Translations under genes and position numbers: made by a program
Shown here: one piece after another, positions 1,789 through 41,703 of the stretch
Layout: each line of letters opens with the position of its first letter
Position numbering within the stretch: the first letter of the stretch is position 1
Assembly: GCA_026398615.1 (NCBI GenBank)
Contig: JAPLSN010000019.1
Location: 1-64,000 of the forward strand
Direction: 5' to 3'
DNA from: Spirochaetota bacterium
Lineage (GTDB): Bacteria; Spirochaetota; Spirochaetia; Treponematales; UBA12059
DNA: 64,000 nucleotides
Notes under the pieces: model-generated
Seen by the model: only the letters and a program-made list of their open reading frames with translations
Databases searched by the model: none
What the model was told of the DNA's origin: nothing

Positions 1789-4323
1789 TTAAAAAGCCCG
1801 CACCGCCCGAACCCGGCTGTCGCTGCCCATGAGGTAGTTGCCGTAGTTGCCCTGGCCGCCGTCGCTGAAATCCTGTTCCCAGGCGACGTCGTAGCCGTAG
1901 TCGTTCCTCGAGGAGCTCCAATACCAAGCAGACCCAAAAACACCACGGCCGGCTTTGTGCAAATTCACGTACATCGCGTCGAGCTCGTCCCTGGAGGGCA
2001 GGAACCAGTCGGAGAAGCCATTGATCGAGAGGTTCTTGCAAAGGGTGGCGGCATAGTTCCCGGCTCCCTGCGCGGCGATGATGGCCTGCGTGTTGGCCCT
2101 GCCCGTACCGACCGCGGTGCCGGTCTTTATGTCGAGGTCGTTGCCGTTGTGCCACTGGATGCCGGCGCTCTGGTCGCTCGGCGCCGCCTCAAGGTAGCGC
2201 CAGCCGTCGCTCGCGCTGCCCTTGTCGTGGAAGATCAAGCCCCCGGCGGGCCCGGTGTCCCCGACCTTCCATGCAGGTTTGGACGCGCTGATGGCCGTGG
2301 TCTTGCCCGCGTCGACCCTTGCCTGCACGCTAAAGACCTTGGCATTGCGATCCGCCCAGCGCACTTCAAGTCCGTGGGTCCCTTCCGGCAGCTTGAGGGT
2401 CAGTGGCGTGGTCCCAGCCTTCTTCCCGTCGATGAACACCTCTCCCGCCCCGTCCTTGGCCCCGGCGCTGACCGCCAGGCTCCCCGCTGCCTGCGTCGGC
2501 TTGGCGCGCTTGCCGGCCGCGAAGTACGCGGCCCGCTGGGCGGGGCTGGCTTCGACGACCGCTTCGTCCGTCGTCAGGTTCATCACCCGCACCGCGCGGA
2601 TGTCCACGCCGTAGCGCGCCCTGGCCGCGTCCCGGGTGATGCCCCAGTCCACCTCCGCCGCCAGCGCGGACGCCTTGACCGCCGCGTCCACGCCCCGTAT
2701 CGCCGCCGCAGGGTCGGCCGCCGCGCCCAGTTCCGCCACCACGGCCACCGGGAACATCGGGACGGCCGGGTCGGCGCTCGACACCGTGAACGGCCAGGTG
2801 CGGGCGTTGCGGTCGAAGGTCCCGATGGCCAGCTTCACGGCGCTCCCCCGCAGGGCCCACACCTTGGTCTGCAGCGTGGCCAGCGTCCCGTCGTACTGCT
2901 TCCTAATGGCCGCGGTCTGGCCGACACGCTGCGACTCGGCGTCCGAGCGCAGCGCGGCCAGCTCGCCCTGTCGCCTGCCCTGCAGGTCGGCCTTTTCCTT
3001 CGCGATGCGGGCATTGAACTCGGGGTCGGTCTCCGTGATGTCCGGCTGCTGTCCGGAGAGGGAGGCCAGCTGCCTGTCCCAGCCCGCGTTGCACGCGTCC
3101 AGGCTCTTCTGCAGCGCGGCGGCGTACTGGCCGTCCACCTCCTTGAGCACCGCCTCCAGCCGCTCCACCGTCTCGATGAGCACGTCCGGGTTGTCTCTGG
3201 CAGCGGCCTGGGCCAGCTTCTCCAGCTCGGCGCGGCGGGTCGCGGCCAGGTTGGATAGGTCGTTCCGGATCTTGGCGGAGGCGGCCTGGGCGGCGGCGCG
3301 CTCGGCGGCGAGAGCGGCCGCCGACTCGGCGGCGGCCTTTTGCTTGGCTGCCTCACGGGCGAGATTCTCTGACTCGAGGGCCTTGGCCTGCTGGAGAGCC
3401 TGCTGCCGCTGCTCCTCGACCTGGAGCTTCTGGCGGGCCTGGGCGTCGTTCGACGCGGCGATCTGCCGCTGAAGCTCTGCGAGCTTCGTATCCAGGCCGG
3501 CGAGCTCGGTTCTGGACCTGTCGAGGGCGGCCTGGGCCCGGGCGGCCGCCTGGGCCGGGTCGACGAAGAAGAAGGGTTCCTTCATCCCGTCGTCCACGCG
3601 GGGGTTCTGCTTGTTGGCGGTTACCGCGGCCACCTCGGCCTTGACGTTCCTCATCATGGCGGTCAGCTCGAGCCCCGGCTCCTTCAGCTGCTTGATGAGG
3701 GCGCCGGAGAAGACCCCGTTCCGCCCCTCCCCGTCCTGGGCCACGTCGCCCGGGCTCGTCGCGTAGACGATGAGGGAGTTCAGGGTCTTGGGCGTGGCGA
3801 CGACCGCGAGGCCGCGGGTCCCCGAGCGGCTTGCGCCGGGGAAGGGATTGTCGCGGCAGGAATCCAGGAAGACCAGGACGGTGCGGACGCCCGTCGCCTC
3901 CATCTTGCCCACCACCGCGTCCACCGCGACCGCCTTGGACCTGACGGAGGCGGCGTCGTCGATGCGGGGGCTCACCGGGATGAGGTAGTTCATGCCCTCC
4001 ACGGCCACGCCGTGACCGGCGAAGTAGAAGAGCCCGGTATCGGCTCCCTTGAGTTTGGCGGAGAAGTCGTTCACCGCCTTTTCGAGGACATCGAGGGCGG
4101 CGTCCTTGACGAGGTAGACCTCGAAGCCACTCTCCTTCAGGGCCGCCGCCACGTCCTCGGCGTCGTTGGGCGGGTTCTTCAGGGGATTGGCCTGGTAGGC
4201 GCCATTGCCGACGACGAGGGCCACGCGCCTAGCGGGGGCCTGGGCGAAGGCGGCCACCGCGGCCAGGGAGAGCGCAGCGGCAAGAAGGGTGGTTCGAAGA
4301 AGGGAGAGAGCGGTTTTCGGCAT
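1789..4323 (-). CDS. Secreted caspase-like protease (orthocaspase) with coiled coil, PEGA and DUF1566 domains
   Basis: An 844-residue protein. A signal peptide (about 1-28, ending AFAQA) is followed by a caspase-fold peptidase C14 domain at about 32-255. The catalytic dyad is visible as His104 in YFAGHGV and Cys156 in LDSCRDNPF. Residues 260-420 are Ala/Gln/Glu/Lys-rich and should form a long coiled coil. A PEGA-type beta domain (GEVFIDGKKAG...) lies near 625-675. The C-terminus, about 690-844, is a DUF1566/Lcl domain (GLIFHDKG, WYWSSS, RVRAVR) of C-type-lectin fold. It probably acts in the periplasm or at the surface; substrates are unknown. The start has GAGGT seven bases upstream and a consensus promoter. 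A second caspase gene of different design lies at 32813. Confidence 0.88.
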   Translation of the reverse strand: MPKTALSLLRTTLLAAALSLAAVAAFAQAPARRVALVVGNGAYQANPLKNPPNDAEDVAAALKESGFEVYLVKDAALDVLEKAVNDFSAKLKGADTGLFYFAGHGVAVEGMNYLIPVSPRIDDAASVRSKAVAVDAVVGKMEATGVRTVLVFLDSCRDNPFPGASRSGTRGLAVVATPKTLNSLIVYATSPGDVAQDGEGRNGVFSGALIKQLKEPGLELTAMMRNVKAEVAAVTANKQNPRVDDGMKEPFFFVDPAQAAARAQAALDRSRTELAGLDTKLAELQRQIAASNDAQARQKLQVEEQRQQALQQAKALESENLAREAAKQKAAAESAAALAAERAAAQAASAKIRNDLSNLAATRRAELEKLAQAAARDNPDVLIETVERLEAVLKEVDGQYAAALQKSLDACNAGWDRQLASLSGQQPDITETDPEFNARIAKEKADLQGRRQGELAALRSDAESQRVGQTAAIRKQYDGTLATLQTKVWALRGSAVKLAIGTFDRNARTWPFTVSSADPAVPMFPVAVVAELGAAADPAAAIRGVDAAVKASALAAEVDWGITRDAARARYGVDIRAVRVMNLTTDEAVVEASPAQRAAYFAAGKRAKPTQAAGSLAVSAGAKDGAGEVFIDGKKAGTTPLTLKLPEGTHGLEVRWADRNAKVFSVQARVDAGKTTAISASKPAWKVGDTGPAGGLIFHDKGSASDGWRYLEAAPSDQSAGIQWHNGNDLDIKTGTAVGTGRANTQAIIAAQGAGNYAATLCKNLSINGFSDWFLPSRDELDAMYVNLHKAGRGVFGSAWYWSSSRNDYGYDVAWEQDFSDGGQGNYGNYLMGSDSRVRAVRAF

Positions 4324-32587: not shown

Positions 32588-32660
32588 TCCCCTGTAGCTC
32601 AGCTGGCAGAGCAAGTGGCTGTTAACCACTGGGTCCGTGGTTCGAATCCGCGCGGGGGAG
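32588..32660 (+). tRNA. tRNA-Asn, anticodon GTT
   Basis: The cloverleaf folds completely: acceptor TCCCCTG with CGGGGGA, D arm GCTC/GAGC, anticodon arm AGTGG-CTGTTAA-CCACT with anticodon GTT, and T arm CGTGG-TTCGAAT-CCGCG. The discriminator base is G, and CCA is not encoded (GCA follows). A terminator hairpin comes eight bases later. Confidence 0.95.
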
Positions 32661-32667
32661 CAAAAAA

Positions 32668-32702
32668 GACGCGATCACCACCAGGTGGTCGCGTCTTTTT
32701 TT
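32668..32702 (+). terminator. Rho-independent terminator of tRNA-Asn
   Basis: Stem GACGCGATCACC (32668-32679) with GGTGGTCGCGTC (32684-32695), with one G-T pair and loop ACCA, followed by seven Ts. Confidence 0.92.
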
Positions 32703-32711
32703 CAATGTCGA

Positions 32712-32730
32712 CCCCGCGCGGATTCGAACC
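32712..32730 (-). repeat. Inverted 19-bp copy of the tRNA-Asn T-arm and acceptor strand
   Basis: Read on the minus strand, 32730-32712 is identical to 32639-32657 inside the tRNA (GGTTCGAATCCGCGCGGGG). No other tRNA parts surround it. Copies of a tRNA 3' segment near the gene are typical of attachment-site scars left by integrative elements, here in inverted orientation. Confidence 0.75.
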
Positions 32731-32812: not shown

Positions 32813-34645
32813 TCAGTCGCCGCGGATGGCGACCCGGAACCCGAGATCTTCCTCCCCGGTGGAAACCGGAGCGAAGGAACTGTAATCAGCGGCAAAATAT
32901 TTCGGCTTCGCCAGACGCCAGCTCCCGCCGGCCGTGGCTGCCAGGAGCGCCACCCCGTCTCCGGCCTTCTTCTGGTCCGCGCACCACTCGCGGACGTTTC
33001 CGGCCATGTGCGCGGCGCCGTCGAGGGTCATGTCCATCAGGAAGAACTGCTCCTGCACCGGTCCCTTCTCGCCGATGATGGGCAGGGCACCCGGTGCCTC
33101 GGAATCCGCGCCCTGGCAGTTGTGGGGATCCCACTCGTCGCCCCAGGGATACACGGTACCCAGCCTTGCCCCCGCCGCGTTGCGCCATTGCGCCACCGTG
33201 GGCAGGACGATGTCGGTGCCGGTCTTCTTCGCCAACCACTTCACGTACGCCATGCAGTCGTCCCAGGTGACATGGATCACCGGATACCAGGCATAGGCGG
33301 GCTTGTAGTACTGCTGCCAGCTGCCCTGGGCGGCGTAGCCGGACTGCTGCACGAAGTCCGCAAACTGGCCGAAGGTGACTTCGGAAGCGCCAATCCAGAA
33401 GCCGGGCACGCCCTCCGAGCCCTGCACATGCACGAAGGCGGTACCGCGCAGATCGCGGGGATCCCGGTCGCTGTGGATCACGAGGTTGACCACGTCGGTG
33501 CGGTAGCCATTCCTGATCAGGACTTCCTTCTTGAGCATGCCATAGGCGTGCACGATTTCCAGGAAATGCGCCCCGGCGGGCAGCTCCTCGATCGTCAGCC
33601 GCGTTCCCCCGGCGATGCTCATGTACGGAGCGCCGTCCAGCAGGATCCGTCCTTCCACGTTGGAGTAGACCTGCGCCGAGCCCGATCCCGGCTCCTTCGG
33701 CGCCGCGATCGCCTCGCTCCTGGTGTCCGTGTCGATGCTCGCGCTGTAGGTGGAGAGCGCTAGATCCCCGAAACTCTCCCCCTGGAACGAAGTGTAGGGC
33801 CGTTGCTTCAATCCCAGACCCAGCGCGTAGCTGGACACGGCATCCTCCACGAAGCCCGAAAGCTCGCGGAAGGTCACGATGCCGTCGCGGTTGCCGTACT
33901 GGTAGTCCGCCTTGCCCTTGATACCTTCCAGCAGAAACCGGGTGAAAACGCCGTAGGCCGAGTCGCGGTCCTCGTAGCTGAACCAGCCGGTCCTCGTGGC
34001 GTAGAAGACGGCAGCCACCTCCGCCCGCTCGTAACGTTCCGCCCGGATCTTCGCGCTCCCCATGCCCCGGCTGGCGCTCCGGGAAACCGTTTCGCGGCAG
34101 GCGTCGATCACCAGCAGGGACTTGCGGACCTGGATGCGGGCGAGCCAGTCCAGGATTTCCCTCAGCGCGAGACCCGAGGCGAACGGCTCGCGGTTGCTGG
34201 TGTCGGCCACGATGAGGTAGCTTTCGCCCTTTTCGTCGGCGATGCCATGTCCCGAGAAGGAAACGACCACCAGATCGTTCGGGGTAATGAAAGCCTCAAG
34301 GTACTTCAGCTTCCCCCGTATGTTCGCGAGCCGGGGGTAATTGCGCTGCGCGTCGAAGCGCGGGTCGATGTCGTCGGTCATCACCGTCACGGAATCGAAC
34401 TGCCCTACGGACTTCAGGGCTTCCCCGAGTCCCGTGGCGTCGCTGCGCGCCTTCTCGAGATCGTTGAACTCGGCGTCCTCGTAGTTGTTGATGCCGATGC
34501 AGATCGCGTAGCGTTTGCCCGCGTTGCCGCTCATCTCCTTGATGGCGTCGGTGCGGCGGACCAAGGTCAGCCCGCGGCTCGCCCCCTGCGCGCCCAAGTC
34601 CAGGACCGCGCACAGGAGAACAAAAACCGAAATCGCGCGTCTCAT
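32813..34645 (-). CDS. Secreted caspase-like protease with C-terminal formylglycine-generating-enzyme (SUMF1) domain
   Basis: 610 residues. A signal peptide (about 1-20) leads to a caspase-fold C14 domain (about 42-290) with the dyad His133 (SFSGHGI) and Cys183 (VIDACRE). A PEGA-like region lies near 330-385. From about 405 to the end is a SUMF1/FGE-sulfatase domain (FWIGASEVTFGQF, WDDCMAYVKWL, LPTVAQWRNAA, GNVREWC, LGFRVA) of C-type-lectin fold. It is probably a periplasmic or surface sensor-protease; the FGE part is more likely binding or structural than a true sulfatase activator. It is the last gene of a three-gene operon, eight bases after the CsgG-like gene. Confidence 0.87.
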   Translation of the reverse strand: MRRAISVFVLLCAVLDLGAQGASRGLTLVRRTDAIKEMSGNAGKRYAICIGINNYEDAEFNDLEKARSDATGLGEALKSVGQFDSVTVMTDDIDPRFDAQRNYPRLANIRGKLKYLEAFITPNDLVVVSFSGHGIADEKGESYLIVADTSNREPFASGLALREILDWLARIQVRKSLLVIDACRETVSRSASRGMGSAKIRAERYERAEVAAVFYATRTGWFSYEDRDSAYGVFTRFLLEGIKGKADYQYGNRDGIVTFRELSGFVEDAVSSYALGLGLKQRPYTSFQGESFGDLALSTYSASIDTDTRSEAIAAPKEPGSGSAQVYSNVEGRILLDGAPYMSIAGGTRLTIEELPAGAHFLEIVHAYGMLKKEVLIRNGYRTDVVNLVIHSDRDPRDLRGTAFVHVQGSEGVPGFWIGASEVTFGQFADFVQQSGYAAQGSWQQYYKPAYAWYPVIHVTWDDCMAYVKWLAKKTGTDIVLPTVAQWRNAAGARLGTVYPWGDEWDPHNCQGADSEAPGALPIIGEKGPVQEQFFLMDMTLDGAAHMAGNVREWCADQKKAGDGVALLAATAGGSWRLAKPKYFAADYSSFAPVSTGEEDLGFRVAIRGD

Positions 34646-34652
34646 CGCTGGC

Positions 34653-36959
34653 TCAGAGCGGCCAAAGGTAGCCGACTATCAGCGAGAAGCTGTTGTTGGT
34701 TGCCGAGTAATCGTAACCACCGATGTAGATGTCATGGCCCGTGGACCAATCGATCATGTAGCCCAGACGCAGGTACACCCCGCTGCCCTTGGCAGGGTCC
34801 ACGAAGGCGGCCCCGGCTCCCACGGTGAAACCGGTGCCCACCCCGAGGTCGAAGAGGAATGCGAGGCTGCTCGATGGCCCGCGTGCGACCAGGTTCACGG
34901 TCCCCGCGGCGCCGAAAACGAACTGATCGGAGGTCTGAAAGTGCAGGAGCGCGCCGGCTCCAATGCCCAGCGAGGGGGACAGGTTCCACAATATGGCGGC
35001 GTTCATGGGAATGTCGATGCCGGAAGAAACCTCCTCTTGGGCATATCCCACATCCGCATAGTAGGAGAGACTGCCATACCCCATGCCGATACCGGCCTGG
35101 AGCAGGGTTTTCGACGCTGGTTTCCCTTGGGAGGCCGTGCTGCCCGGCGGTTGCGCATTGGCCATGGCCTGTGTCTTGGTGACCGCGGTGGGTGGTTTGG
35201 CATGCGCTGCCGAGGTCGGGGCAGCCTGCACCTTCTGTGCCGGTTTCTGCTTGAGTGCCTCCTGGTTCAGGTCGATGATCACCACCGTATCCCGTGAAGG
35301 CTCGAGATCCGGCTTTTTGAACGAGCGCGTGAAGATGATGCCGCCATCAACTTCGCCGGAGACCGATGGGCGGTACAGGAACATGAAAGTGTAGCTGACG
35401 TCGGGCAACGCGTCCCAATCCGCCTGGCTGTACTCGCTCTCGATCGTGAGCTTCTCCTTGTCGCGCCAATACATCCAGTTGCTGTTGAGCGTGTCGTCGA
35501 TCTTGAGCAATGCCTGGGATTCGAAACCGGGGTTGAACAGGAAGCTCACCTTGGTCTTGCGCGGCGCTTCCAGCGCCTTCTTCTCCTGCAGCCTGAAGTC
35601 GGCGATGGCGATGCTCACGTCCTTCTGGGTGTGCAGGTCGACGCGGTAGGGGCTGCTGCGGACAAACAAGCGGGAAGATACCCGCCACCACCCGGTGATG
35701 GCGCTCGCACCCGACGACGGCTGTGCCGTGGCCGTGACTTCGTACCCCGAGATCTGGATATTCCCGATCACGATATCATTCGAGGCGGGCCGGAACACGG
35801 CTTTGACCGCCTCGTCCTTCGTGTGCCTCAGCTTGTCGGGCCATGTCATGTAGACCAGCGGCTCCTCGCCGTTGGAGATCTCGACGGTAAACCCCGGCGG
35901 CGGGTTGGACGATACGCCGATCTCCCACCAGTATTGCTCGCGCTGCTTCTCGGGCACCGCTTCGAACCGGTAGGAGTCGGTGGGGAGCACACCTTTTATG
36001 GTGATGGTACCCCTTTCGCTCTCCAGGTGCTGCTTCTCGATGGTGATATGGTAAATGTCACGGGGCGCCAGGGTGAAGGGGATGGTCTTTATCTGCTGGG
36101 TGACGCTGTTGTACACGGAGATCACGTACTGGCCCGGCAGGGCCCAGTAGAAGGTTTCCTTGGCCACCATCCGCTTGTGCGAGTCGTCCGAGTCGGCGAC
36201 GGTGGCGTCATCCTTCCTGATCTGCCGGGATTGCCAGAAGAACAGGAGGGACTTCTCCTCCGGAGATTCGGAGACCTCCGCGCTCTCCTTGATGACGAAT
36301 TGCGCGCAATGGCTGTTCAGGATGTCCCTCATGATGAGCTGGGCGATCCGCGCACAGGCGGCCGGCAGGTCGCGAAGGTCGCTGTCCACCACCTCCGAGT
36401 AGGAGTACAGCTCTTCCGCGCGCTTCGTGTTGAGCACGCGCACGTTGAAGCCGATGGCATCCCTCTGCTTTTCCCCGGAGCCGATTCTGGTTTCATAGAC
36501 GTTTCCGAGAACCAGGTAGTCGAGATCGGTAAAGGCATAGGCCCCGACACTCTTGGTATAGAGGTCGCGGGTGGTGAAATTGTTGTTCTGCAGGGCCAGC
36601 TCCACGTACTTCTTGTCGAAGATCTTGAAGATCGGCGGGAAATACCTCCGCAGCTCGGTCGCGGCCTGTGCCGAGCCGGCCAGCCCCGGGTTCTCCTTGT
36701 TGTACTCGGGTGCACCGAGATACTTGTCGCGGGGAGTTTCTACCTGCGGCGCCGCATTCTGCTGCACGAGTACCGTGAGCAGCGCCTGGCTGATGAGCTG
36801 GCCGTAGAAGGTCTTGGTTGCCTCGTTCTCGGCCGCGCTCATGGAAACCTCGAAATCCATCACCGCCAGGGTGGGTGGCTGCAGAAAGGTGAAATCCTGC
36901 GTGCTCGCCGGAAGGACGAACGCGAGTGCGAGGGCGACGATGAGTAGTACGCGCTTCAT
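34653..36959 (-). CDS. CsgG/LpoB-like envelope protein with C-terminal beta-barrel domain
   Basis: 768 residues with a signal peptide (about 1-20, PASTQ). The N-terminal part (about 28-215: TLAVMDFEVS, YLVLGNVYETRIG, AARIAQLIMRDIL) resembles the CsgG/TolB-N/LpoB fold used by curli secretion and penicillin-binding-protein activators. The middle is beta-rich and unassigned. After a Pro/Ala/Gln linker (about 575-620), the last 150 residues are alternating strands (MGYGSLSYYADVGYA, VYLRLGYMIDW) ending VGYLWPL, like a small outer-membrane barrel. It sits between a lipoprotein gene and a caspase/FGE gene with gaps of 19 and 7 bases. Confidence 0.6.
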   Translation of the reverse strand: MKRVLLIVALALAFVLPASTQDFTFLQPPTLAVMDFEVSMSAAENEATKTFYGQLISQALLTVLVQQNAAPQVETPRDKYLGAPEYNKENPGLAGSAQAATELRRYFPPIFKIFDKKYVELALQNNNFTTRDLYTKSVGAYAFTDLDYLVLGNVYETRIGSGEKQRDAIGFNVRVLNTKRAEELYSYSEVVDSDLRDLPAACARIAQLIMRDILNSHCAQFVIKESAEVSESPEEKSLLFFWQSRQIRKDDATVADSDDSHKRMVAKETFYWALPGQYVISVYNSVTQQIKTIPFTLAPRDIYHITIEKQHLESERGTITIKGVLPTDSYRFEAVPEKQREQYWWEIGVSSNPPPGFTVEISNGEEPLVYMTWPDKLRHTKDEAVKAVFRPASNDIVIGNIQISGYEVTATAQPSSGASAITGWWRVSSRLFVRSSPYRVDLHTQKDVSIAIADFRLQEKKALEAPRKTKVSFLFNPGFESQALLKIDDTLNSNWMYWRDKEKLTIESEYSQADWDALPDVSYTFMFLYRPSVSGEVDGGIIFTRSFKKPDLEPSRDTVVIIDLNQEALKQKPAQKVQAAPTSAAHAKPPTAVTKTQAMANAQPPGSTASQGKPASKTLLQAGIGMGYGSLSYYADVGYAQEEVSSGIDIPMNAAILWNLSPSLGIGAGALLHFQTSDQFVFGAAGTVNLVARGPSSSLAFLFDLGVGTGFTVGAGAAFVDPAKGSGVYLRLGYMIDWSTGHDIYIGGYDYSATNNSFSLIVGYLWPL

Positions 36960-36978
36960 GTCCCGTACCTCCTTACGC

Positions 36979-39153
36979 CTACTTGAGGGCGAAATCCTGC
37001 TTGTACTCGTAATCGCCCGAGATGACGTTGACCACGGACACCTGGAGCGAATCCGGCTCGTAGCTCACCAGGGGGAAGTACCGCGCCAGAAGACTTCCGG
37101 CCGGAGTCTTGATGTGTCTCGACGCGGGCGTCGAGGTTTCCATCAGGGAGAAATACACGATCTTGTCGATGTTGTAGTAGGTCTTGATCGCCGCACCCCA
37201 CTGCGAGAGGAGCAGGGGCGAGAGGTACAGGAACTCCTCCGATGCGTCCTTCGGGGCGCTCGCCTTGCGGATGAGGTAGCGCGAGTACAGGGATTCCAGC
37301 TTCTCATTGGGCGCCGCATTCCCGGCCATGAGCGCCGTGCCCAGGCCGTCTTCGAACCACGTCTGCATCAGGTTGATCGCCATGGCGAGGTTCCACTCCT
37401 CCGCCGGCGTCAGGGTCTTGGGAGCCTCGGTCTTCCCGGCAAAGCCGGCAGGCTTTGCCGCAGCCTTGGCGTCATCGGTCTTGCCGAAAGTGCGCAGCAC
37501 CTCGTAGGCGTCGTAGCATGACCTCATGACGTAATCCGGGACATAGTCCGGGGCGCCCGGGGTACCCCCCTTGAGCAGGCGCGTGAGCATGAAGCTCTCG
37601 GCCGGCGCCTTGTCGCCGATGTAGTCATTGGCGATCTCCATGCGCCGATTGATCAGGACCATATTGGTGGAGTCGTTGATCACCGCCAGGTCGCGCAGGG
37701 CGCTCGCCAGCGCCGTGAAGGATTTCGTCCGCTCGTAGCAGCGATACAGCACGTTCTGTTCCAGCTCGCTGTCGACACCGAGGGTGAGGAAATCGCTCAG
37801 CACGACCTTGCCGCTGGCCGCCATGTCCACGACCTTCACGTAGATCCCGAGAATCCTGGAGCTGAGCTCGAGGTCCTTGTCGCCCTGGAGCAGCTGAACG
37901 CCCTGTATCTTCTTCCAGAGCACGCGGTAGCCGATCATGTAGCGCGCGCCGTAGTAGTTCTGGAACTCCGCGTAGTCCCCGCTCAGGAGCGGATTGACGT
38001 AGTGCACGGCGTGCGCCACCTGCCAGGGTTCCTTGTACTGGCGCTTGAACAGCTTCTCCATCACGTTCACGCCCGAGATCGAGCTGAAAAGCTCCTGCAG
38101 GGCGTTTTCCACGGCGAAGTCTTCGCGGGTAACGGGGTAGGTGCCGAAGACCGGGATATCGTCGATCTTCACGAACACGGCGTTCATCGGCATCTTCACG
38201 CCCTGGTCCCGCAGCGTCCGCGAAAAGGCGTCCCGCTGTGCGCCGGCCACCTGCGGCGGTAGCGTCAGGCGCAGCGTGCCGAGGAAGGGTACCTTCTGCC
38301 TGGGGAAGTCCTTGGAGCTCATCGTCTTCGTGCCGTTCCAGAGCACGCGGCCGCCGCGCGCCACGTCCACCAGGCGGAAGGAGAGATTGAACCCGATGTA
38401 TTCGGTTTCTGCCGATATGACGTTGTCCACCGAGTACATGAGCAACTTCTGCACGGGCTTATTCGCGTCCTGGAGCTCTTTCCAGGTCGCGAACCTCAGC
38501 ACGCTCGTGCCGAAGACGAGCTTGCCGGCCTGATGATCTTTCAACGCGTCATCGCTGATAGCCGGCGACTGAAGACGCTCGAAACCTTTACCCTTCTTCA
38601 GCACCGCGGCGAGCATCCCGCTTTCCAGGGAGTCGATGAAATACGGGTTGCGCCGGGAGAACTCGGCGACGTCAAACGTCTCGACCCCGGAATAACCGAC
38701 GCCGGCCAGGATCCTGCCCAAGAGCAGCTCATCGTACTTTTCGCCATCGGTTTTCAGGATATAGACCTTCCTGGCCGCATCCAGCCTGAAGATGGCATTG
38801 AGAAGCGCGACTTCGCGGCTCTCGCCGACCAAGACCCCGGCCGGGGGCTTGAACAGGTTCCGCGCCCCGGGCCTGATCCTGCCCTCGAAGACGTCCTGGG
38901 GAATCTCGAGCGGTGTCGGCACGAAGCGCCATCCGTCGCTACCCTTGAACGATCTGACGGGCACGAGGAGGATCCGGTCGCCGCGCTCGACGTACTGGTC
39001 GGCGACGGGCTGCAGCGCCTCCTGGCCCATGCGGTAGACATCGGAGGTGTTGATCCCGATCGGCTTTTCGGGTTCCTTGCGCGGGCTGCTTCCGCATCCT
39101 GAGAAAATGCCCAGCAGGATGACCACGATGGCGATACGGCAATATGTTCGCAT
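36979..39153 (-). CDS. Large lipoprotein of unknown function
   Basis: 724 residues. The N-terminus MRTYCRIAIVVILLGIFSGC is a clear lipoprotein signal with lipobox FSGC (Cys20). I recognise no domain in the rest. It is mixed alpha/beta, with repeated segments of the type VLKTDGEKYDELLLGRILAGVG that recall the nucleotide-free CsgG/TolB-like fold, and an Ala/Lys linker near 560-580. It is the first gene of the operon with the CsgG-like barrel protein and the caspase/FGE protein, behind a near-consensus promoter, so it should be an envelope partner of both. Confidence 0.6.
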   Translation of the reverse strand: MRTYCRIAIVVILLGIFSGCGSSPRKEPEKPIGINTSDVYRMGQEALQPVADQYVERGDRILLVPVRSFKGSDGWRFVPTPLEIPQDVFEGRIRPGARNLFKPPAGVLVGESREVALLNAIFRLDAARKVYILKTDGEKYDELLLGRILAGVGYSGVETFDVAEFSRRNPYFIDSLESGMLAAVLKKGKGFERLQSPAISDDALKDHQAGKLVFGTSVLRFATWKELQDANKPVQKLLMYSVDNVISAETEYIGFNLSFRLVDVARGGRVLWNGTKTMSSKDFPRQKVPFLGTLRLTLPPQVAGAQRDAFSRTLRDQGVKMPMNAVFVKIDDIPVFGTYPVTREDFAVENALQELFSSISGVNVMEKLFKRQYKEPWQVAHAVHYVNPLLSGDYAEFQNYYGARYMIGYRVLWKKIQGVQLLQGDKDLELSSRILGIYVKVVDMAASGKVVLSDFLTLGVDSELEQNVLYRCYERTKSFTALASALRDLAVINDSTNMVLINRRMEIANDYIGDKAPAESFMLTRLLKGGTPGAPDYVPDYVMRSCYDAYEVLRTFGKTDDAKAAAKPAGFAGKTEAPKTLTPAEEWNLAMAINLMQTWFEDGLGTALMAGNAAPNEKLESLYSRYLIRKASAPKDASEEFLYLSPLLLSQWGAAIKTYYNIDKIVYFSLMETSTPASRHIKTPAGSLLARYFPLVSYEPDSLQVSVVNVISGDYEYKQDFALK

Positions 39154-39223: not shown

Positions 39224-39251
39224 AGTATAGGACCGGGGAAAAGGATGTCAA
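39224..39251 (-). promoter_or_regulatory. Promoter of the lipoprotein-CsgG-caspase operon
   Basis: On the minus strand consensus TTGACA (39251-39246), 16 bases, TATACT (39229-39224). The start codon is about 70 bases downstream. Same -35 and spacer length as the first caspase gene's promoter. Confidence 0.72.
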
Positions 39252-39268
39252 GTTGTCTTGACCCCGGC

Positions 39269-39538: not shown

Positions 39539-41677
39539 TCAGCGTCCTTCGGACAATTCCTCGACTTCAATCCGGCCGAACAGGCATCTGCCCCGTCGTG
39601 TCCTGCAGAATCCGTACATGCCGTTCCCGAAGCTGCCGTCGACAATGTCGAAGATCGCGCTGCCGCCTGCACTGACTCTCAGGCGCTGCCCCACAGCCTC
39701 GACGGCAAGAACGTATGTTCCTCCTGCATGCCAGGCGAAAGGCTTTTCCTCGACCACTGCCAGCCCATGGTCGTTCCTGAGGAAGGCGATCCTCCCGGGC
39801 GACGCGAGGACGACGGCATAGCCCATCATGGCTCCCTTTGCCCTGAACAGGATGCCGTGTCCATCTCCGGCGAGAGGCGTTACCGTCGTCGAAAACCTGA
39901 TGTCCCTGGAGTAGTAATTGCCGGCATAGAATTCAGCGCGCCCCACGCTCATCCCGAGAAGCGAATCGCCTTCGAGGTTCCAGAAACCGCGGTTAGCGAC
40001 GCCGGGCGTTATGGTCGCGAATTCCGCGCGCTGTTTCGCGAAATCGACGGCATATCTGGCTTTTCCCGTCACGGAGAAATCCTTGATGAATATCTTCCCC
40101 AGGCAACGTTCATCCGTGAGAACTTCCACCTTGATGCCGATTTCATCGATCGAAGCGCCATCGGTGTCGGGCAGGACATATTCGATATCGGTCCAGATCC
40201 CCGGCGCGAGTTCGAAGGCCGCACCTTCAAGAATCCTTTTTCCGTGCGTTTCCCGCGCGTAGGGGATGACGGCGAGAGGCGAGCCGCCCCAGCGCTCGCA
40301 GTTGACGCGCATTTTCATCGTCTGGCCCGGATGGACCAACGGGGAAAACGCCGGCGAGTAGCGCTCATCGTCGAAATCCTCGCGTCTGTAGAAGGGTTTG
40401 AAAAAAACGCCCGACCCCGAGCCGCGGGGCAGGCGGTCCACGAGGATCTCGAGCGCGCCCCCCGATTCCAGGCGGACATTCTTCAGGGTAAGCGCATTGG
40501 AATCGGTCCTGAAGCCATGCGTCGAGCCGGAAAGGGTGAAATCGAAATGGAGCTCGCGGTATCCGGTCGAAGCTTCAAGATATGCTTCCAGTCCTGCGCG
40601 ATCCGACTTTTCGGCTTCCGTTTCGGTGCCGGACTCGTGATTGAAGCGGAGGCCGAGAAGGGCCATCTGCTTCGAAAATGTCGGCAGATCGACGATGTTC
40701 AGGGAGCCGGCGATGCTCGAACAGGCGAAGAAATCATTCATCGGCAGTCGGTAGCGATCGGCTACACCCTCGAGCCCTCCGGCGACGCCGATGATCGTAC
40801 CGACATTCCCCGCGTTGCAATCGGTGTCCCAGCCGCACATCGTCGCGATCTCGACGGTCCGGGACAGGTCGCCCTCTCCGTAGAGAAGGGACAGGATGCA
40901 CACGCCCGCGTTGGGAATGATGTGGCAGACGCCCGGATAGCGGTCGTAGCCGAATCCGGCCGTGAGGTAATCCATGCAGGCACGGAAATCCGATGGATTC
41001 CCCCGGTGAAATTCGATGACGGCCCTCACGACCCGGGCGTATTCCGAATCGGCCGGAATCACCGACTGGGCCGCGTCCAGTATCGCCGCGACATCGTCCG
41101 TCTCGAATGCCCTGGAGATCGCGGCCGCGATGAAGCGCCCGCCGTACAGTCCGTTCCCGTCATGGGATACGCTCGCGGCCATGCCGCCATAGTACGCGGC
41201 CTTTCCGACGTCGGCCGGGAAAACGAGTCCCCATGTGTCGACGAAAATCTGGCCGCCGATCTGTTCCGCGATAGCCGCCCCGTTCGTCGCCATGGAACCC
41301 GATTCGGGAGCTTCCATGCCCGAGGCGAGATTGAGGTAAGCAGTGTGTTCGGTGCTCCTGCCGTATCCGCCCCACCAGTGAAAGCCTTTTTCCTCACGTG
41401 TGTAATTGAGAAAGGCTTTCCCGATATCCGCGGCCGTTATGTCCCCGTCCTTGCCGTAATCGACAAGCGCGCGGATGAAAAACGCCGGACCGTTGAAATC
41501 GTCGTCGGCGGCGAACAACCTGTAATCCCTGACGTAGGAGCTGATTTCACCGTAAGTCTTTCTTATCCTTTCATAGGTCCAGACAGTCGGCTCGACCGGC
41601 GCCCCGATCCTTATTCCGATGCATTTTCCCAGTACGCCTGCGTAGAGTTTTTCAAGATAATTCCGCGGGATGGGCAT
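39539..41677 (-). CDS. ADP-ribosylglycohydrolase-fold protein with large C-terminal beta domains
   Basis: 712 residues from ATG 41677 (GGAG six bases upstream). Residues 1-345 have the ARH fold: the C-terminal metal motif CGWDTDCNAGNVGT is intact (Asp284, Asp286), but the N-terminal TDDT motif is replaced by ADDDFNG (58-60). About 370-712 is beta-sandwich sequence ending in a LamG/glycoside-hydrolase-associated type module (GILFRAKGAMMGYAVVL, FAWHAGGTYVLAVEAVG), probably binding carbohydrate. ARH enzymes cleave N- or O-glycosidic bonds of ADP-ribose and related glycosides. It is the last intact gene of the LacI-controlled locus and lacks a signal peptide. Confidence 0.78.
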   Translation of the reverse strand: MPIPRNYLEKLYAGVLGKCIGIRIGAPVEPTVWTYERIRKTYGEISSYVRDYRLFAADDDFNGPAFFIRALVDYGKDGDITAADIGKAFLNYTREEKGFHWWGGYGRSTEHTAYLNLASGMEAPESGSMATNGAAIAEQIGGQIFVDTWGLVFPADVGKAAYYGGMAASVSHDGNGLYGGRFIAAAISRAFETDDVAAILDAAQSVIPADSEYARVVRAVIEFHRGNPSDFRACMDYLTAGFGYDRYPGVCHIIPNAGVCILSLLYGEGDLSRTVEIATMCGWDTDCNAGNVGTIIGVAGGLEGVADRYRLPMNDFFACSSIAGSLNIVDLPTFSKQMALLGLRFNHESGTETEAEKSDRAGLEAYLEASTGYRELHFDFTLSGSTHGFRTDSNALTLKNVRLESGGALEILVDRLPRGSGSGVFFKPFYRREDFDDERYSPAFSPLVHPGQTMKMRVNCERWGGSPLAVIPYARETHGKRILEGAAFELAPGIWTDIEYVLPDTDGASIDEIGIKVEVLTDERCLGKIFIKDFSVTGKARYAVDFAKQRAEFATITPGVANRGFWNLEGDSLLGMSVGRAEFYAGNYYSRDIRFSTTVTPLAGDGHGILFRAKGAMMGYAVVLASPGRIAFLRNDHGLAVVEEKPFAWHAGGTYVLAVEAVGQRLRVSAGGSAIFDIVDGSFGNGMYGFCRTRRGRCLFGRIEVEELSEGR

Positions 41678-41703
41678 GGTACGCTCCGTATTCATGATCG
41701 GAA

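What the first reader, a model, noticed from the sequence alone, without database searches (positions are those of the whole stretch)
32813..39153. Envelope module: lipoprotein, CsgG-like barrel protein and caspase-FGE protease in one operon
Three exported proteins (724, 768 and 610 residues) are encoded with 7-19 base gaps behind a TTGACA-16-TATACT promoter. The last joins a caspase with an intact His/Cys dyad to a C-type-lectin-fold FGE domain; the second has a CsgG/LpoB-like N-terminus and a terminal barrel. A secreted caspase tied to an outer-membrane assembly could be a surface sensing, export or self/non-self killing device.
Basis: partly seen in the sequence, partly recalled or inferred. 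Interest (0 to 1): 0.65.

Follow-up and report, generated by a model that had tools for sequence, protein, structure and literature searches.

The report
Outer-membrane caspase with two conserved partners
A spirochaete operon exports a caspase-type protease together with two otherwise unknown envelope proteins, a lipoprotein and an outer-membrane barrel protein that both look like CsgG/LpoB-type assembly factors; the same three genes stay together in two other spirochaetes, one of them in another class, so they probably work as one unit at the outer membrane, although what that unit does is untested.

Summary
Three minus-strand genes (32813-34645, 34653-36959, 36979-39153) lie 7 and 19 bases apart behind a TTGACA-16-TATACT promoter, and each has an export signal as its only hydrophobic segment. 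Gene 3 is a caspase (intact His133/Cys183) joined to an FGE-fold domain without the FGE cysteine pair. Gene 2 has a CsgG-like N-terminus (profile-profile) and a C-terminal 8-strand outer-membrane barrel (OmpX-like, Z 14.5). The lipoprotein was found in no other genome searched; the barrel protein had one other, weak, barrel-only match. The trio caspases form their own clade. So it is a rare, co-inherited module. Anatomy suggests a periplasmic complex under the outer membrane, where a predicted Arg/Lys-specific caspase is held by CsgG/LpoB-like partners. Substrate and purpose are inferred, not shown. New variant of a known kind; moderate interest.

The parts
39224..39251 (-). sigma-70-type promoter TTGACA-16-TATACT of the operon
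   Evidence: 11 of 12 consensus bases; sequence
36979..39153 (-). 724-aa outer-membrane lipoprotein (lipobox LGIFSGC); residues about 295-460 have the LpoB/GNA1162/PelC/CsgG fold; residues 200-300 probably repeat it
   Evidence: no Pfam, NCBIfam or PDB sequence match
34653..36959 (-). 768-aa protein: signal peptide, CsgG-like domain (about 25-220), beta-rich middle (about 263-563), Pro/Ala/Lys linker (about 570-612), 8-strand outer-membrane barrel (613-768)
32813..34645 (-). 610-aa exported protease: signal peptide, C14 caspase 44-286 (His133, Asp181-Ala-Cys183), PEGA-like spacer (by eye), FGE-fold domain 412-606 without the FGE cysteine pair
32662..32701 (.). hairpin with A and T tracts on its two sides between tRNA-Asn and the caspase gene, likely two-way terminator
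32588..32661 (+). tRNA-Asn(GTT), next to parC; conserved neighbourhood in the family, the trio lies in the variable slot beyond it

Best explanation
The operon encodes a three-part, co-inherited protease complex at the periplasmic face of the outer membrane. The lipoprotein (anchored by its lipid) and the barrel protein (anchored by its 8-strand barrel) present CsgG/LpoB/PelC-type domains that build the scaffold. The caspase is exported, docks on that scaffold through its PEGA-like spacer and its non-catalytic FGE-fold domain, and cuts a target after Arg or Lys when the scaffold signals. A plausible target is the unstructured Lys-containing linker that joins the barrel to its periplasmic domains. 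Shown by computation: gene order, export signals, catalytic dyad, barrel, CsgG/LpoB-type folds, co-occurrence. Inferred: periplasmic side, physical complex, Arg/Lys specificity, regulated cleavage, target.
For: Linkage: lipoprotein in 2 of 149 relatives and 2 of 393 genomes of the phylum (own genome counted each time), 2 loci in the GTDB-wide scan; every case has the barrel gene 10-19 bases away and the trio caspase next or one small gene further. The barrel protein is found over its length only with it. The linkage survives inversion of the caspase gene in G211. Trio caspases form a clade, support 91/99, with the same order of relatedness as the partners. Catalytic SGHG and DACR kept in all three. 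The FGE tail GGSWRLAKPKYF lacks cysteine in all three. Barrel, CsgG-like domain, LpoB/PelC/CsgG fold. Orthocaspases cut after positively charged residues (PMC6426788, abstract); Asp at C-2 fits this (own knowledge of metacaspase and MALT1 S1 sites).
Against: No interaction, cleavage or localisation data. The two structure models are poor overall (mean pLDDT 44, three-sequence alignments), so only the barrel and one lipoprotein domain are reasonably firm. Only three examples are known. A shared operon does not prove a physical complex, and the linker sequence is not conserved as a cleavage site. FGE-fold caspases are common and may have other jobs.
Confidence: 0.45

Rival explanations
1. An export or assembly device: the CsgG/PelC-like proteins and the barrel form an outer-membrane secretion or assembly site, and the caspase matures or attaches the exported substrate, as the clan-CD peptidase PorU does in the type IX system, whose PorK/GldK lipoprotein also has an FGE fold.
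For: CsgG, PelC and LpoB are outer-membrane lipoproteins that serve export or synthesis machines, and their folds are the ones matched. The FGE domain matches PorK/GldK weakly (TIGR03525 27 bits; PorK structures).
Against: An 8-strand barrel is too narrow to pass a protein. No substrate gene, type IX C-terminal signal or motor lies in the operon. GldK score is far below its cut-off (27 of 350 bits). The caspase is C14, not C25.
Confidence: 0.25
2. A cell-suicide, anti-phage or rival-killing device in which the caspase is an effector unleashed at the envelope.
For: Patchy distribution, location in a variable slot beside a tRNA gene and a weak PADLOC 'caspase' match (35.8 bits, residues 45-204) are usual for defence genes.
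Against: All parts are exported, away from DNA-based triggers. No immunity gene, sensor ATPase, toxin or phage gene; none in viral contigs. The genome has nine C14 genes, most of those examined exported, which looks like envelope physiology.
Confidence: 0.12
3. Ordinary envelope upkeep: the partners tune peptidoglycan synthesis or outer-membrane attachment like LpoB, and the caspase is a housekeeping protease carried along by operon structure.
For: Best structural match of the lipoprotein domain is LpoB (Z 9.2); CsgG-domain proteins are widespread in the relatives (51 of 79 genomes).
Against: Housekeeping genes would not be missing from nearly all relatives; the caspase stays linked even after local inversion.
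Confidence: 0.15

Closest known systems
Prokaryotic metacaspase/orthocaspase joined to an FGE-sulfatase domain (Pfam C14 + PF03781; PMC3501461)
   Same: Same two-domain architecture; 33 of 671 prokaryotic metacaspases in that survey have it; intact His/Cys dyad; C14 operons with outer-membrane (OmpA) genes were noted there in 14 cases.
   Different: Here it is exported and locked to two specific partner families not found in that survey's text or in the papers searched.
CsgG / PelC / LpoB / GNA1162 / TolB-N fold of envelope lipoproteins
   Same: Fold of lipoprotein residues 295-460 and profile of the barrel protein's N-terminus; lipid anchor of the lipoprotein.
   Different: Below every Pfam/NCBIfam threshold; long proteins (724, 768 aa) with probable repeats, one of them joined to an 8-strand barrel; no curli, Pel or PBP1b genes alongside.
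OmpA/OmpX-type 8-strand outer-membrane barrels
   Same: Strand number, length and fold (OmpX Z 14.5, 1.7 A over 116 residues).
   Different: Barrel is C-terminal, behind about 590 residues of other domains; no sequence match.
Type IX secretion parts PorK/GldK and PorU
   Same: FGE-fold envelope protein and a clan-CD cysteine peptidase at the outer membrane (PorU from general knowledge).
   Different: One fused protein; C14 not C25; GldK score 27 against a cut-off of 350.

Membership tests
C14 caspase / orthocaspase | C14 domain over curated cut-off | tested here: met
   57.6 bits against 21.4
C14 caspase / orthocaspase | catalytic His and Cys | tested here: met
   SGHG His133 and DACR Cys183, kept in all three orthologues
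C14 caspase / orthocaspase | Arg/Lys-specific peptidase activity | not testable with these tools
   only the Asp two residues before Cys is seen
Formylglycine-generating enzyme | FGE-sulfatase fold over cut-off | tested here: met
   88.1 bits against 23.3
Formylglycine-generating enzyme | copper-binding cysteine pair after the GGS(W/Y) motif | tested here: not met
   GGSWRLAKPKYF... to the end has no Cys in any of three orthologues; position of the pair from general knowledge
CsgG family (PF03783) | Pfam score over cut-off | tested here: not met
   no match for either partner
CsgG family (PF03783) | distant profile relationship of the barrel protein's N-terminus | tested here: met
   hhalign 82-94% probability; shuffles at most 0.8%
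CsgG family (PF03783) | nonameric ring with a transmembrane beta-pore | not testable with these tools
   needs structure of the assembly
LpoB/PelC/GNA1162 lipoproteins | fold of the periplasmic domain | tested here: met
   lipoprotein 295-460: LpoB Z 9.2, then GNA1162, PelC, TolB, CsgG; model confidence is moderate
LpoB/PelC/GNA1162 lipoproteins | lipobox cysteine | tested here: met
   Cys20 invariant
OmpA/OmpX-type barrel | 8 amphipathic antiparallel strands | tested here: met
   strands 619-767, alternation, OmpX Z 14.5
Type IX secretion (GldK/PorK) | TIGR03525 over cut-off | tested here: not met
   27 of 350 bits
Diversity-generating retroelement target | second, template copy of the gene's 3' end | tested here: not met
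   no second copy in a 99%-complete genome
Known anti-phage caspase systems (PADLOC) | system partners present | tested here: not met
   only a partial caspase match; partners have none

The most novel reading that the evidence does not exclude
A new kind of outer-membrane signalling protease: a CsgG/LpoB-type scaffold made of a lipoprotein and a barrel protein that holds an exported caspase and fires it at the envelope, a periplasmic counterpart of a caspase-activating platform.
Probability: 0.2. Interest if true: 0.8.

Novelty: new variant of a known kind. Interest (0 to 1): 0.47.

Why it matters
Bacterial caspases with export signals and FGE-fold domains have been listed for years without a known envelope partner. 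Here is a set of two dedicated partners, conserved as a unit between two classes of spirochaetes, that says where the protease probably works (outer membrane, periplasmic side) and what it may be held by. That turns 'caspase of unknown role' into a testable three-protein system.

Tried and rejected
Diversity-generating retroelement: no template copy. Active formylglycine enzyme: cysteine pair absent. Idea that leptospiral relatives carry the caspase fused to a barrel, from their aromatic C-termini: rejected, the C-terminus is DUF5683 with hydrophobic helices. Named defence system: no. Mobile on plasmids or viruses: lipoprotein not found in either collection, though the viral scan reaches close relatives only. 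PDB sequence search with the lipoprotein profile found nothing, and with the barrel-protein profile only a chance-level match. CsgG-like domain of the barrel protein did not appear in its fold search, whose rows are filled by the barrel; this is no evidence against it. G174 barrel-only match (E 2e-5) is too weak and short to count as a relative. An OMP-like gene upstream of a related caspase in G199 (L046 5352-6104) has no Pfam match and was not counted as support.

Full report
What is there. The minus strand of the window carries three genes, 36979-39153 (724 aa), 34653-36959 (768 aa) and 32813-34645 (610 aa), with gaps of 19 and 7 bases. A promoter TTGACA-16-TATACT lies at 39251-39224, 11 of 12 consensus bases, with AAGGAGG before the first ATG. 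An inverted repeat GTCAAG-ACAA-CTTGAC overlaps the -35 box. The upstream gene in the same direction (ADP-ribosylglycohydrolase family, 39539-41695) is 385 bases away, and a hairpin stands between the caspase gene and tRNA-Asn, so the trio is an operon of its own. Each protein's only hydrophobic segment is N-terminal; the 724-aa protein has a lipobox whose cysteine is invariant among orthologues.

The caspase. Pfam gives C14 at 44-286 and an FGE-sulfatase domain at 412-606. SGHG (His133) and DACR (Cys183) are intact in all three orthologues. Asp two residues before Cys suggests cleavage after Arg or Lys (own knowledge; orthocaspases cleave after positively charged residues, PMC6426788 abstract). 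The FGE tail GGSWRLAKPKYFAADYSSF...GFRVAIRGD has no cysteine in any orthologue, so it is probably a binding module rather than an enzyme. The spacer between the two domains looks PEGA-like by eye; Pfam sees PEGA only in paralogues of the same genome. No template copy of the 3' end exists, so it is not a diversity-generating target.

The barrel protein. No Pfam family matches. Its AlphaFold model is poor overall (mean pLDDT 44) but residues 619-767 form eight strands at pLDDT about 65-80. VIA-align puts this region on OmpX (Z 14.5, 1.7 A, 116 residues), Ail, OmpA, NspA and OmpW. The N-terminus aligns with 21 spirochaete CsgG-domain proteins by hhalign at 82% (94% with slightly wider limits), covering AVMDFE, the 'DKKYVELAL' helix, 'DYLVLGNVYE' and 'VRVLNTKRAEEL' in order; 150 column shuffles reach at most score 18.6 against 42.6.

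The lipoprotein. No family or PDB sequence matches. Its model is also weak overall, but residues 295-460 match, in order, LpoB (Z 9.2), GNA1162, PelC, an LPHT-ring protein, TolB and CsgG. That the leading rows belong to one fold family makes this credible despite the weak model. Residues 200-300 resemble this domain (hhalign 28-67%), so the protein is probably a chain of such domains; a third repeat at the C-terminus is only suspected.

Is it a unit? The lipoprotein was sought in 149 relatives, 393 genomes of the phylum by profile and the GTDB-wide contigs by pattern. It occurs in three genomes: this one, G020 (same family, a Spirochaetes MAG, JAHIWG01) and G211 (another class, Spirochaetes MAG, JAGOCL01). 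The barrel protein occurs over its full length in the same three and nowhere else searched. In G020 order and strand are the same with 10-base gaps. In G211 lipoprotein and barrel genes are 13 bases apart, followed by a 155-aa lipoprotein gene and then the caspase gene on the opposite strand. Identities to the window proteins are 57/50/65% and 33/29/43%. The three caspases form a clade (91/99) apart from the leptospiral, G199 and other relatives tested. G+C around the trio is 67% in G020, 36% in G211 and 62-63% here, so it is old in each genome. Limits: the GTDB scan reaches only close relatives, 'nowhere else' applies to the genomes searched, and three cases are few.

Where it sits. parC followed by tRNA-Asn is kept in the family, but what lies beyond differs and none of the retrieved relatives has the trio there. 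A 19-base inverted copy of the tRNA 3' end lies at 32712-32730 and a similar arrangement is seen in G015. The trio therefore occupies a variable slot, and patchiness may come from transfer or loss.

How it most likely works. Both ends of an even-stranded barrel face the periplasm, so the CsgG-like part of the barrel protein should be periplasmic; a CsgG/LpoB-type lipoprotein and a soluble exported caspase fit the same compartment (inference). I propose a periplasmic scaffold at the outer membrane that holds the caspase and releases its activity on a signal, with the Pro/Ala/Lys linker ahead of the barrel as a candidate target. The side, the complex, the trigger and the target are not shown. 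The main rival is an export or assembly site with a processing protease, for which the type IX pair PorU/PorK is the nearest functional analogy but not kin by the tests run.

Compared with what is known. Caspase-FGE fusions and C14 operons with outer-membrane genes are known (PMC3501461). The papers searched gave no C14 operon with CsgG/LpoB-type genes; subscription journals are mostly missing from that library. I file it as a new variant of a known kind: an exported orthocaspase with dedicated outer-membrane partners.

Noticed in passing
window 1789-4323 (-): A second exported caspase in the same window: signal peptide, C14, PEGA, then an Lcl_C domain. Across the genome there are nine C14 genes, most of those examined with N-terminal signals, including two with WD40 propellers and one caspase-PEGA-FGE.
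   Followed up: partly
L047-L051, L053 (leptospira-like relatives G223, G307, G240): The caspases most similar in sequence outside the trio are exported caspase-DUF5683 proteins with a PGWGQYY motif and hydrophobic helices; at least two stand next to large lipoproteins with Lcl_C domains.
   Followed up: partly
window 32639-32657 and 32712-32730: Perfect 19-base inverted copy of the tRNA-Asn 3' end (GGTTCGAATCCGCGCGGGG) 54 bases downstream of it; a similar copy occurs at the same place in G015 (L145). Possibly a trace of insertions at this tRNA.
   Followed up: partly
window 39247-39262: Inverted repeat GTCAAGACAACTTGAC over the -35 box of the trio promoter; could be an operator.
   Followed up: no
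L045 4041-4508 (+): In G211 a small 155-aa lipoprotein gene overlaps the end of the barrel gene and stands between it and the inverted caspase; no family matched.
   Followed up: no
L046 5352-7957 (+): In G199 a caspase 47% identical to the trio's in the protease domain is preceded on the same strand, 119 bases away, by a 250-aa exported protein ending in aromatic residues that may be an outer-membrane barrel; it has no Pfam match.
   Followed up: partly
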